Shown in pieces: positions 21,981 through 25,917 of a stretch of 47,642 nt of DNA. Under the pieces are notes generated by a model that searched no databases, had not been told where the DNA came from, and saw only the letters and a program-made list of their open reading frames with translations. Source of the stretch: a virus. The stretch is from the IMG/VR virus record IMGVR_UViG_3300034407_003043, positions 1 to 47,642 of that record, one strand, 5' to 3'. The position numbers and the translations under genes were made by a program. Every line of letters begins with the position of its first letter. Position 1 is the stretch's first letter.

Positions 21981-22056
21981 TGGCGGTGAGTATAGGATTC
22001 GAACCTATGACCTAGTGGTTAACGGCCAGTCGCATATACCATTTATGCTTCCCACC
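21981..22056 (-). tRNA. Degenerate tRNA-Asn(GTT), 5' half overlapping an HNH gene
   Basis: A 76-nt unit with encoded CCA, T-arm ATAGG-TTCGAAT-CCTAT, variable loop AGGTC and acceptor 3' strand ACTCACC plus G73. The 5' acceptor GGTGGGA pairs at six of seven positions. The D-stem is GCAT/ATGC, with only one linker base. The anticodon stem ACTGG/CCACT has a C.C mismatch and the loop is CCGTTAA, so position 33 is C instead of the near-universal T. The first 14 bases are also the end of the HNH coding sequence at 22043. It may be a rebuilt, weak tRNA or a pseudogene. Confidence 0.55.
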
Positions 22057-22402
22057 CCTTAGCGAAATGTTCAATACGGTGACAGTTAGAACATAACATA
22101 ATGCACTTTTCAAGCTCGGCTTCAATCTTAGCCCAACCCCAAGTTACCCCTTTTGCCCCTAAACCAAAGTCTTTATGTTCTGGCTCAGTATGGTGAAACT
22201 CGTAAACGCAATTAGGGAAAACCCCTTCACAATGAGCACATTTACCACCCATATGTTTTACTGCTTTGGTCTTTAACATCTTACGACGTTTAGATACCGC
22301 ATCAACCGAGCACTTCTTACATCGCCCTTTAGGACGGTCTTTTGACACTCGAAAATCTGTTAACCCGTGAATCTTACACTCACGCTCTACTGTAGGGTTC
22401 AT
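22043..22402 (-). CDS. HNH homing-type endonuclease inserted in a tRNA gene
   Basis: A 119-residue HNH protein. An N-terminal zinc cluster (C9, H12, then CKKC near 28-31) precedes GGKCAHCEG, the catalytic YEFHHTEPEHKDF and the closing CIMLCSNCHRIEHF. This is the HNH_5-like layout with two CxxC pairs. AAGGAG lies eight bases before ATG 22402. Its last five codons and stop run into the tRNA-Asn-like gene, and a second copy of a tRNA 5' half lies 59 bp before its start. It therefore looks like a mobile endonuclease that entered a tRNA gene. Confidence 0.88.
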   Translation of the reverse strand: MNPTVERECKIHGLTDFRVSKDRPKGRCKKCSVDAVSKRRKMLKTKAVKHMGGKCAHCEGVFPNCVYEFHHTEPEHKDFGLGAKGVTWGWAKIEAELEKCIMLCSNCHRIEHFAKGWEA

Positions 22403-22440
22403 ATAGTAATCTCCTTAAATGGGGGAGTTCACTATAACAT

Positions 22441-22476
22441 GGTAGAGCAGTGTTTGCTATGCCAGTCAGCTCTACC
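22441..22476 (-). other. Hairpin formed by the orphan tRNA 5' half and the HNH leader
   Basis: GGTAGAGC (22441-22448) and GCTCTACC (22469-22476) pair over 8 bp with a 20-nt loop. One arm is the D-arm of the orphan tRNA half. It could end tRNA-side transcripts or shield the HNH leader; there is no U-run. Confidence 0.4.
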
Positions 22477-22493
22477 TACTGAGCTAACCCACC
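22461..22493 (-). pseudogene. Orphan 5' half of a tRNA
   Basis: The minus strand from 22493 reads GGTGGGT-TA-GCTC-AGTAGGTA-GAGC followed by TGACTGGC: a textbook tRNA 5' half with T8, A9 and a perfect D-arm. Its acceptor strand pairs 7 of 7 (one G.U) with the ACTCACC acceptor of the tRNA 3' half at 21985-21991, beyond the HNH gene. No T-arm follows it locally. Both it and the downstream tRNA contain GACTGGC at the same relative place, so the HNH gene is flanked by a 7-bp direct repeat. Confidence 0.7.
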
Positions 22494-23618: not shown

Positions 23619-24599
23619 TTACGATATTGCATAATGGTTATTTCTTAGCTTACGAATGATATCAGCACTAGGCTTATCCATATCTTTAAGCATGTTGATA
23701 CCAGTTAGTTGTTGCACTACTTTAGGTAACCACTCACCGATGTAGACTTCAGCCAATATGTTGTTGTAGTGAGTCTTAGTAGAGTTCACATGGTTAGGTA
23801 ATGAACCAAATCCATCATGAATTAGTTTCAGTTGATGTGGTTTGTCCTCTTCCAATATAGAATCAACGATAGCCAGTAGTTCACGTAGATACATATGGTC
23901 GATGTCAGCTAGGTAACCTCGTTTAATTTCCTCAGCACCACGAATAGATACCATCTTGAACTTCTTAGAGATAGCTTCTAGACGTTTAACTTCAGTCATA
24001 GTACCAATTTGAGTTTCACCATTAAGGCATGTCTCAATAGCTTCCTTAGCCATACGTAGTTGAGTTTCATTGTAGTCACAACGAGCATCGACCTCACGTA
24101 GTACAAATGCATCTAGTGAATGTGTTACACGAGCAGCTAAAGCTTTAGTACCTTCATCACCTTTCTGTTTAGCACCTACTTCTTCGTACACATAAGTGAA
24201 GCGTTTACCATTGTAGTAGTACACTTCAGAGTTGCTACGTACTACTTTGATGTGTGCGGTATGACCATCAGGTAGTTCCCATTCATAGTATTCAGCTTCT
24301 GAATCCCATGCATTTACTAACAGGTTCTTAACTACTTCAGCTCTTGGTACAGCTTTGTAGTAAGACTTAGTGAATAGGTCATGGAAGTCACCAAATACTG
24401 TTTTAGGTGCTTTACCTGAACCGTATACGTAAGGAACAGTTGCTTTCTTAACATTCTTACGTTTGATTACAGCTAGGTTAGGTACCTCTTTTCTCATGTA
24501 GCCAAAGATAGATGTGTACAGGTCAGGTACAGTATCACTGATAGCACCTGTGATAAGCATACCTTGGATACAGCGTGTAGCTACCGATAGTAATTGTGG
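23619..24599 (-). CDS. N4 RNAP II-type RNA polymerase large subunit, exon 2
   Basis: Second exon of an intron-split gene; 326 codons. It starts CCA CAA TTA (24599 on), giving PQLLSVATRCIQG before the first internal ATG. Joined to exon 1 it makes a 420-residue subunit, near the 404 residues of N4 p7 (gp16). Motif B is VKKATVPYVYGSG (K146, Y153 in the joined protein), matching T7 RNAP K631/Y639. THSLDAFVLREV corresponds to the T7 HSQDGSH region. Motif C is LKLIHDGFGSLP with catalytic D356. A reader starting at the internal ATG 24560 would miss the first 13 codons and the polymerase motif A. Confidence 0.88.
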   Translation of the reverse strand, partial: PQLLSVATRCIQGMLITGAISDTVPDLYTSIFGYMRKEVPNLAVIKRKNVKKATVPYVYGSGKAPKTVFGDFHDLFTKSYYKAVPRAEVVKNLLVNAWDSEAEYYEWELPDGHTAHIKVVRSNSEVYYYNGKRFTYVYEEVGAKQKGDEGTKALAARVTHSLDAFVLREVDARCDYNETQLRMAKEAIETCLNGETQIGTMTEVKRLEAISKKFKMVSIRGAEEIKRGYLADIDHMYLRELLAIVDSILEEDKPHQLKLIHDGFGSLPNHVNSTKTHYNNILAEVYIGEWLPKVVQQLTGINMLKDMDKPSADIIRKLRNNHYAIS

Positions 24600-25635
24600 C
24601 AGTATGTTCAGACAGGTTCACTACACCTGTCCCGTTTAATTATAAATTACCAAATATCCATCCCTTGAGTATTCCACTCTTCTTGGGTTTATCAATATTC
24701 GTGTAATGAAATCTATGTTCCATTTGTCTAGGGGTTAAACCGAGAGTAGATGCGTAATCTTTCTTGGTTATGTCGTAGACTTCTGTTTTATTACCTAGGT
24801 CGTCAATAAAGTACCAAGGAGTAAAAGCTTGATTGCTTATCCCCTTATGTCCTTTTTTACTATTAGGTATACCTTTAGTGGTTTCGGATAATCTAACATC
24901 TGCTGCTTTCTGTGCAGGTGTTCTATTCTCACCACAGTAGTTACTTAGCTTTTGAGCAGTACCTCTGAGATACCCATGAGTATCTTCGGTTCTACCTTTC
25001 AGCTTAGATTGCATACTACGGATGTTAGGATGGGTCTCTGCTTTCTGTCCATACTTATCAAAGGTTTTAAGTCTTTGATTATAGTAATGTTCTGACTCTA
25101 CACAACCATGTTCTAGGATGTATTGAATCTCCGCATTAACAGCATCTTCTCTGCTATCGTGTAGGGCAAGAATTGTCTTGGTACATATACTCTCATCCCT
25201 GATTACAGGTAACTCAGTACCTGACCCTCTGTATGTTACATCCAGTTCAGGGTCAAGGTGAGTAGAGTGTACGCCTACGTAAAGCATTCCATCATTAAAG
25301 GTTAATAAGTAAGTATAATGGTTCATAAATGTCCTTGAGGTATGTTGCTTCTGAACCTCAAGTATATGTTAAACAGCTATGCATTTCTACATAGTTCAGA
25401 CTATATCTTCACCCTCAGTTGTAGGGTGTTCCGCATTTCCATTTAAAGCACTAGGCTACCGTTTGGCTGTATGGATTTCATCCTCCGTTCTGGAAGGTCT
25501 ATCCTAGTCGTTGAACCTTCAAAGGGATTCCTCCCTAAGCTTGGCTGCTGATTGTCTTCACCTTTACGTGGTCAGAGTTCCCAGCAATTAACGGAATGTT
25601 CGATAACCATTACTGGTTAAAGGGGCACACTATTT
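24600..25635 (-). ncRNA. Group I intron (IA-like) within the RNA polymerase gene
   Basis: A 1036-nt intron. The 5' exon ends GGGT and pairs with GCCC in the intron, placing a U.G pair at the splice site (P1). The last base is G and the next exon starts CCACAA, with UGUG in the guide region able to form P10. Core elements on the minus strand: P (AATTGCTGGGAACTC, 25589-25570), Q (AATCAGCAGCCAAGC, 25553-25539), R (GGTTCAACGACTAGG, ending 25500) and S (GAAGATATAGTCTGAAC, 25410-25394), with the GACTA/TAGTC P7 pair. A 3' hairpin GACAGGT-GTAGTGA-ACCTGTC precedes the 3' splice site. The order and sequence match T4 and SPO1-type introns. It encodes a GIY-YIG endonuclease after the S element. Confidence 0.92.
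24640..25326 (-). CDS. GIY-YIG homing endonuclease encoded in the intron
   Basis: A 228-residue protein. The N-terminus MNHYTYLLTFNDGMLYVGVH is a GIY-YIG domain in a degenerate form (YTY...YVG), followed by a conserved YRGSG and the EAxxxE-like helix REDAVNAEIQYILEHG with the catalytic glutamate. The C-terminal half holds NUMOD-like DNA-binding parts: TPWYFIDDLGNKTEVYDITK and then YASTLGLTPRQMEHRF. AAGGACATTT precedes the ATG. It lies downstream of the intron core. Its likely job is to cut intron-less alleles of the polymerase gene and spread the intron. Confidence 0.9.
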   Translation of the reverse strand: MNHYTYLLTFNDGMLYVGVHSTHLDPELDVTYRGSGTELPVIRDESICTKTILALHDSREDAVNAEIQYILEHGCVESEHYYNQRLKTFDKYGQKAETHPNIRSMQSKLKGRTEDTHGYLRGTAQKLSNYCGENRTPAQKAADVRLSETTKGIPNSKKGHKGISNQAFTPWYFIDDLGNKTEVYDITKKDYASTLGLTPRQMEHRFHYTNIDKPKKSGILKGWIFGNL

Positions 25636-25917
25636 ACCCGAAGCTGCTGCATCTAGCTCAATGTAATGACCAGATGGATTACCATTAACGATATCCCATA
25701 CATTCAATAGAGATGCAGTGAATATCTCAGGTTCATCAGCACTATCAATCTTGTCTTGAAAGTGTTTGCTTAGGTCAAGCATTCCCTTACATTTACGGAT
25801 AGTAGGTAACTGTTCTCTACCCCAAGATAGGCGTTCTTCAAATGGTTTCTTGTCTAGACCGAACATAGATGCTAAATCGATAAGTGACCATTGTGCAGCA
25901 GTAAATAGGTGTTTCAT
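25636..25917 (-). CDS. N4 RNAP II-type RNA polymerase large subunit, exon 1
   Basis: First exon, 94 codons, from ATG 25917 (AAGGA upstream). It corresponds to the palm region of T7 RNAP before motif A: GLDKKPFEERLSWGREQL resembles the T7 segment around VDKVPFPERIKF, and the exon ends GHYIELDAAASG with catalytic D89 (T7 D537). Without splicing the frame would end after one more codon (AAA TAG, 25635-25630), so a truncated 95-residue product would be inactive. The splice joins GGT to CCA and continues as PQLLSVATRC, in frame. Transcribed with the small subunit and the 25949 gene. Confidence 0.88.

What the first reader, a model, noticed from the sequence alone, without database searches (positions are those of the whole stretch)
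21981..22493. HNH gene wedged in a tRNA-Asn-like gene with duplicated tRNA 5' half
A perfect tRNA 5' half (22493-22461) faces a T-arm and acceptor 3' half (22020-21981) that match it 7 of 7, with an HNH gene in between. The HNH 3' end supplies a second, poorer 5' half that overlaps its own last codons, giving a 76-nt tRNA with encoded CCA. A 7-bp direct repeat GACTGGC flanks the insert at the same tRNA position. It looks as if a mobile nuclease inserted and brought a replacement tRNA half, or as an unusual split tRNA.
Basis: seen in the sequence. Interest (0 to 1): 0.68.

Follow-up and report, generated by a model that had tools for sequence, protein, structure and literature searches.

The report
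Mobile nuclease gene lodged in tRNA
A small DNA-cutting gene of a selfish kind sits inside a virus's asparagine tRNA gene, having left the old front half of that tRNA behind and supplied a new front half that overlaps its own last codons; the same nuclease-tRNA overlap recurs in many other phages and on many kinds of tRNA, which points to a mobile element that specialises in tRNA genes and leaves them complete.

Summary
On the minus strand of an N4-like phage contig, an orphan tRNA 5' half (22493-22461) is followed by an HNH gene (22402-22043), whose last 14 nt are the start of a complete but weak tRNA-Asn (22056-21981). The 3' half pairs 7/7 with the orphan half and 6/7 with the HNH-supplied half. 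Orphan plus 3' half scores as a full-threshold tRNA-Asn resembling the uninterrupted tRNA-Asn of N4-like Erwinia phages (62/76 against 56/76).

It is not unique. In an unselected sample of 75 relatives, 13 HNH genes overlap the 5' end of a tRNA (2.5 expected). Six end at exactly tRNA nt 8-10 (0.07 expected), so the tRNA's own U8-A9-R10 is the HNH stop codon. Truncated tRNA stubs lie upstream of the HNH more often than chance (10 against 1.8; P about 2e-5). One HNH-tRNA cassette pair is 97.5% identical in weakly or unrelated flanks.

Best reading: a free-standing HNH homing endonuclease specialised on phage tRNA genes, which carries or overlaps a replacement tRNA part. It works like SegB but is a different nuclease family. 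Cutting, homing and tRNA production are untested. A split tRNA is unlikely. New variant of a known kind.

The parts
22461..22493 (-). Orphan tRNA-Asn 5' half (nt 1-33), the displaced stub
   Evidence: Read directly; 7/7 acceptor pairing with the downstream 3' half; nearest of 113 tRNA-Asn genes is the uninterrupted gene of N4-like phage Tellus
22043..22402 (-). HNH endonuclease gene (119 aa); CxxC...FHH...CxNCHRxxH motif
   Evidence: ORF; phrog_2255 HNH endonuclease 3e-26; invariant HNH and zinc residues in 11 relatives; profile matches McrA and LtrA/maturase HNH domains
21981..22056 (-). Regenerated tRNA-Asn(GTT) with encoded CCA; its 5' end lies inside the HNH gene
   Evidence: Rfam RF00005 39.7 bits; ARAGORN only at 80% threshold
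22043..22056 (-). 14-nt overlap: last HNH codons and stop are also the start of the tRNA
   Evidence: Coordinates; same layout (usually 10 nt, stop = tRNA nt 8-10) in many relatives
22461..22467 (-). Left copy of GACTGGC, end of the stub
22025..22031 (-). Right copy of GACTGGC, in the anticodon arm of the downstream tRNA
22402..22436 (-). Predicted RNA hairpin that pairs the Shine-Dalgarno GGAG and the A of the HNH start codon
   Evidence: hairpins upstream of the start are common in the family
22441..22476 (-). GGTAGAGC (in the stub) facing its exact 8-nt complement GCTCTACC
   Evidence: not the predicted minimum-energy fold; meaning unknown

Best explanation
A free-standing HNH homing endonuclease gene entered a resident tRNA-Asn gene of an N4-like phage. 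The resident nt 1-33 remain upstream as a dead stub. The element supplied a new 5' part (about nt 1-25 to 32) that overlaps the HNH stop, so a complete tRNA-Asn is re-formed with the resident 3' half. SHOWN: the anatomy, the better fit of the stub to the 3' half, recurrence of the HNH-tRNA 5' overlap on many isotypes, enrichment of stubs, one clear co-mobile HNH-tRNA cassette pair, and a start-sequestering hairpin like those of known phage homing endonucleases. INFERRED: that the nuclease cuts HNH-less tRNA genes, that the break is repaired by copying the HNH plus adjoining tRNA sequence, and that the different D-arm of the new half shields the gene from its own nuclease.
For: Stub plus 3' half is a full-threshold ARAGORN tRNA-Asn, 62/76 identical to uninterrupted Tellus tRNA-Asn; the native gene is found only at 80% threshold, 56/76. 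Among 113 tRNA-Asn genes the N4-like Tellus and Frozen genes are among the nearest to both stub and 3' half, whereas the HNH-borne half is nearest to other tRNAs, among them LAh_6's odd-D-arm tRNA-Asn beside a related HNH. Uninterrupted tRNA-Asn heads the tRNA cluster downstream of RNAP2 in N4-like Vibrio phage K479. Family: 13 of 75 unselected HNH ORFs overlap a tRNA 5' end (2.5 expected), 6 at exactly -10 (0.07 expected); 56 of 122 at -10 in the larger, tRNA-enriched set over 14 isotypes. Upstream stubs 10 against 1.8 expected, including Asn (L241), Pro (L008), Trp (L352), Ile (L093), Arg (L275). L329 and L332: HNH-tRNA-Pro cassette 477/489 identical, right flank unrelated and left flank only partly similar. 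HNH present/absent next to the same tRNA: VH1_2019 against phi-ST2, PAK_P2 against JG004. Hairpin upstream of start in 45% against 9% of controls, TATAAATA late-promoter motif in 37 of 114. The window's HNH groups with L241, also Asn with a stub.
Against: No close relative of this phage with an intact tRNA-Asn was found, so insertion into this gene is not shown by direct before/after comparison. In most other stub cases the stub does not pair with the downstream 3' half (4-6 of 7), so there the whole downstream tRNA, not only its 5' part, is probably foreign. In VH1_2019 and PAK_P2 the HNH sits exactly before an unaltered resident tRNA, with no half replaced. The stub's anticodon-arm spacing is one nt too long. 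Near-identical HNHs can be followed by different tRNA alleles, so HNH and tRNA do not always travel together. Nuclease activity and homing are untested.
Confidence: 0.6

Rival explanations
1. Two tRNA-Asn genes stood in tandem. An HNH-tRNA-Asn unit arrived beside a resident tRNA-Asn, whose 3' half was later deleted. The downstream tRNA is wholly foreign, and the stub is ordinary decay of a redundant copy.
For: KVP40 has two different tRNA-Asn genes in tandem at the equivalent site. In most other stub loci the stub does not match the downstream 3' half. HNH and tRNA can move as one cassette.
Against: In the window the 3' half pairs better with the stub (7/7 against 6/7), and the composite looks more like N4-like tRNA-Asn than the native gene does. 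The stub ends at the shared GACTGGC.
Confidence: 0.27
2. Plain neighbourhood effect: HNH genes accumulate between tRNA genes, and deletion of spacer makes the ORF run into the next tRNA, where UAG/UAA at nt 8-10 happens to stop it. No tRNA-specific insertion.
For: U8-A9-G10 is near universal in tRNAs, so one reading frame always stops there. Near-identical HNHs precede different tRNA isotypes, with the upstream tRNA constant (groups A and B).
Against: Does not explain truncated 5' stubs, the frame bias (72:14:11) or the excess at exactly -10 in the unselected set.
Confidence: 0.09
3. An unusual split tRNA or alternative 5' halves used in trans.
For: The stub is a near-perfect 5' half and pairs 7/7 with the 3' half.
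Against: No better-than-chance pairing between the sequences flanking the halves (P 0.15). A contiguous downstream tRNA exists. No intron model in the insert.
Confidence: 0.02
4. A degenerate group I intron with an HNH gene interrupts the tRNA.
For: The phage has a group I intron with GIY-YIG gene in RNAP2. Introns do occur in tRNA genes (own knowledge).
Against: Rfam finds no intron core in the insert. The non-coding part is only about 58 nt on the 5' side. The 5' flank lacks the usual U before the splice site.
Confidence: 0.02

Closest known systems
SegB of phages T4/T6 (free-standing GIY-YIG homing endonuclease in the tRNA cluster; PMC13096335; Table 1 of PMC2988022)
   Same: Lies among tRNA genes and cuts in the tRNA region. 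[quoted passage not shown] Translation is controlled by a hairpin (PMC2988022).
   Different: GIY-YIG, not HNH. No ORF-tRNA overlap with the tRNA supplying the stop codon, and no tRNA stub left behind, is described in the passages read.
Free-standing HNH homing endonucleases of phages (MobA-MobE and others; PMC2988022, PMC10448857)
   Same: Small HNH proteins, sporadic, next to conserved genes, hairpin and late-promoter control.
   Different: The listed Mob genes lie by protein genes such as nrdA, nrdB and 39. Insertion in a tRNA gene with regeneration of its 5' end was not found in the literature searched.
Intronless homing (segF/56, segG/32, mobE)
   Same: Nuclease gene without intron or intein; presumed target beside the gene.
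   Different: Known cleavage sites lie hundreds of bp or more from the insertion (PMC2988022). Here the insertion is at or inside the presumed target itself.
Integrative elements that use tRNA genes as attachment sites (own knowledge)
   Same: The element carries a piece that restores the tRNA after insertion, leaving the displaced piece at the far end.
   Different: Those restore the 3' end with an integrase. Here it is the 5' end, with an HNH nuclease and no integrase.

Membership tests
Free-standing HNH homing endonuclease | HNH catalytic and zinc-binding residues | tested here: met
   Invariant C55, C58, H70, H71, C104, N106, C107, H108, H112 in 11 relatives; phrog_2255; McrA and LtrA HNH domains. 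Pfam HNH itself is below cut-off.
Free-standing HNH homing endonuclease | Sporadic presence at an otherwise occupied site in close relatives | tested here: met
   For family members: VH1_2019 against phi-ST2, PAK_P2/JG003 against JG004/PA10. Not testable for the window, no close relative found.
Free-standing HNH homing endonuclease | Hairpin and late-promoter control upstream of the start | tested here: met
   Window hairpin pairs the SD; family 45% z<-2 against 9% control, TATAAATA in 37/114. Supportive, not strictly defining.
Free-standing HNH homing endonuclease | Cuts the allele lacking the gene and is inherited preferentially | not testable with these tools
   Needs biochemistry and mixed infection.
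SegB-type tRNA-region homing endonuclease | GIY-YIG domain | tested here: not met
   The protein is HNH.
SegB-type tRNA-region homing endonuclease | Association with tRNA genes | tested here: met
Group I intron in a tRNA gene | Intron catalytic core in the insert | tested here: not met
   Rfam finds the only group I intron at 25377-25645.
Split (trans-spliced) tRNA | Complementary flanks that bring the halves together | tested here: not met
   Duplex energy no better than shuffles, 15% reach it.

The most novel reading that the evidence does not exclude
The overlap is a built-in control. RNase P cutting at the tRNA 5' end removes the last codons and stop from the HNH message, so any transcript that makes tRNA yields a non-stop nuclease mRNA, while the recoded 5' half keeps the tRNA working yet uncleavable. 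The element would be a natural self-rescuing gene drive with expression tied to tRNA processing.
Probability: 0.12. Interest if true: 0.78.

Novelty: new variant of a known kind. Interest (0 to 1): 0.57.

Why it matters
If right, a widespread phage nuclease family uses tRNA genes as landing sites and repairs them as it lands. That would help explain why phage tRNA arrays change so fast and hold fragments and swapped alleles, and would give a natural example of a selfish gene that carries a replacement for the piece of gene it breaks. It can be tested directly in laboratory phages such as PAK_P2/JG004 or the KVP40 relatives. It also warns annotators: HNH calls and tRNA calls hide each other where they overlap (tRNA-Lys unannotated in PAK_P2 and JG003, HNH unannotated in VH1_2019, VCPH, ClubL and Miskis).

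Tried and rejected
Split tRNA: flanks do not pair beyond chance. Group I intron in the tRNA: no Rfam hit in the insert. Plasmid relatives of the HNH: none. Close viral relatives from the RNAP2 C-terminal exon and the 136-aa neighbour: none. Exact search for an uninterrupted copy of the stub in viral contigs: none. The idea that one tRNA isotype is the universal target was rejected: isotype changes at least 54 times among 106 members on the tree, with isotype-consistent clades (Pro, Arg, Met) and mixed ones (Val/Ala/Gly/Asn/Arg). The idea that the tRNA 5' half is always the replaced part was rejected: in L328/L396 and L347/L395 the whole tRNA body differs behind almost identical HNHs. The exact complement GGTAGAGC/GCTCTACC was noted but not explained.

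Full report
WHAT IS THERE. The window is a complete 47,642-base IMG/VR virus record of an N4-like phage: the split RNA polymerase RNAP2 matches N4-like phages and is itself interrupted by a group I intron and a GIY-YIG gene. On the minus strand, downstream of RNAP2, come in order: an orphan tRNA 5' half (22493-22461), a short spacer, an HNH gene (22402-22043), a tRNA-Asn (22056-21981) that starts inside the last codons of the HNH gene, and a normal tRNA-Met (21903-21828). The stated coordinates and the GACTGGC repeat are correct.

WHICH 5' HALF BELONGS. The 3' half pairs 7/7 with the orphan half and 6/7 with the half provided by the HNH end. Joining orphan and 3' half in a script gives a tRNA-Asn that ARAGORN accepts at full threshold; the native gene is accepted only at 80%. 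As a query, the composite finds tRNA-Asn of N4-like Erwinia phages first and is 62/76 identical to that of Tellus, against 56/76 for the native gene. Among 113 phage and related tRNA-Asn genes the N4-like Tellus and Frozen genes are among the closest to both orphan and 3' half, whereas the HNH-borne half is closest to a different set, including LAh_6, where an odd-D-arm tRNA-Asn lies beside a related HNH. So the most likely history is a tRNA-Asn broken after nt 33, with its front replaced. The re-formed tRNA is weak (A7-A66, missing linker nt, C28-C42, C33), and its function is uncertain.

IT RECURS. Relatives of the HNH were collected from viral contigs, genomes and phages. In the unselected viral set (75 ORFs) 18 have a tRNA 5' end within 40 nt of the ORF end (5.6 expected), 13 overlap it (2.5 expected), and 6 overlap by exactly 10 nt (0.07 expected). 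At -10 the HNH stop codon is tRNA nt 8-10, the conserved U8-A9-R10. In the larger set, partly collected by a pattern that demands a nearby T-loop and therefore biased, 56 of 122 sit at -10 on 14 isotypes, and the overlap frame is biased 72:14:11. These counts are not corrected for relatedness.

STUBS. Orphan A-boxes upstream of tRNA-linked HNH genes: 10 in 18.8 kb, against 1.8 expected from the rest of the same loci. Convincing ones besides the window: L241 (Asn), L008 (Pro), L352 (Trp, including the anticodon), L093 (Ile), L275 (Arg), and L108, where a tRNA-Asn in a Dependentiae metagenome contig looks plainly broken. Most stubs end in the D-arm; the window and L352 end in the anticodon arm. 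Only in the window and L108 does the stub fit the downstream 3' half better than the local 5' half does.

MOBILITY. L329 and L332 share a 489-nt HNH-tRNA-Pro cassette at 477/489, with unrelated DNA to the right and only partial similarity (62/82) to the left. Nearly identical HNHs also stand before different isotypes or alleles, with the change starting at tRNA nt 1, so the junction is a recombination point. Between close phages, VH1_2019 differs from phi-ST2 and PAK_P2 from JG004 by a block ending exactly at tRNA nt 1 that adds the HNH and changes the upstream tRNA region; there the downstream tRNA is unchanged.

CONTROL OF THE NUCLEASE. The window's HNH start and Shine-Dalgarno are in a predicted hairpin. 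Across the family 45% of start regions fold with z below -2, against 9% of controls, and 37 of 114 carry the T4 late-promoter motif TATAAATA within 80 nt. Known phage homing endonucleases (I-TevI, segB, mobE) have such hairpins and late promoters (PMC2988022).

HOW IT PROBABLY WORKS. Inferred from homing biology: the nuclease cuts tRNA genes that lack it; repair copies the HNH with neighbouring tRNA sequence; the resident front half is stranded; and the altered D-arm may prevent recutting. None of these steps was tested.

COMPARISON. The nearest working analogue is SegB, a GIY-YIG enzyme tied to tRNA genes that cuts within them and whose gene shares microhomology between its 3' end and the tRNA-Tyr 5' end (PMC13096335). 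The family here is HNH (phrog_2255; McrA/LtrA-like domain), so it is not SegB. Searches of the held literature did not turn up a description of an HNH gene whose stop codon is supplied by a tRNA it overlaps. The library is partial, so prior description elsewhere is possible.

VERDICT. Observation confirmed; interpretation as a mobile nuclease with replacement half partly supported and generalised; split tRNA rejected. New variant of a known kind.

Noticed in passing
window 23619-25917: N4-like RNAP2 gene split by a group I intron (25377-25645) with a GIY-YIG gene (24640-25326).
   Followed up: partly
L086, about 165 nt upstream of the HNH start: A tRNA whose anticodon loop appears to hold an insert of about 35-40 nt (CTCCATTAGCTCAGTGG...GGCATGGAGAGCCA).
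   Followed up: no
L117, L138, L149, L182: Actinobacterial (Thermoleophilia and similar) metagenome-assembled genomes carry an HNH relative just before a tRNA-Asn (L182 overlaps by 10 nt); in L138 and L149 the last HNH histidine is changed (SNCHAEVE).
   Followed up: no
L313, L315, L316, L024: KVP40-like Vibrio phages carry several different tRNA-Asn alleles at one locus, with or without the HNH.
   Followed up: partly
L328 and L396: HNH 99% identical and 3' flank 92% identical, but the tRNA-Thr body between them only 66% identical.
   Followed up: partly
L024 2280-2420 and L316: A degenerate tRNA-like sequence with a 7/7 acceptor match (GCTACGT...ATGTGGC) directly upstream of the HNH.
   Followed up: no
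window 22441-22476: GGTAGAGC in the stub's D-arm is followed 20 nt later by its exact complement GCTCTACC; a clade of Asn-linked HNHs has a similar GGTAGAA...TTCTACC hairpin before the start codon.
   Followed up: partly
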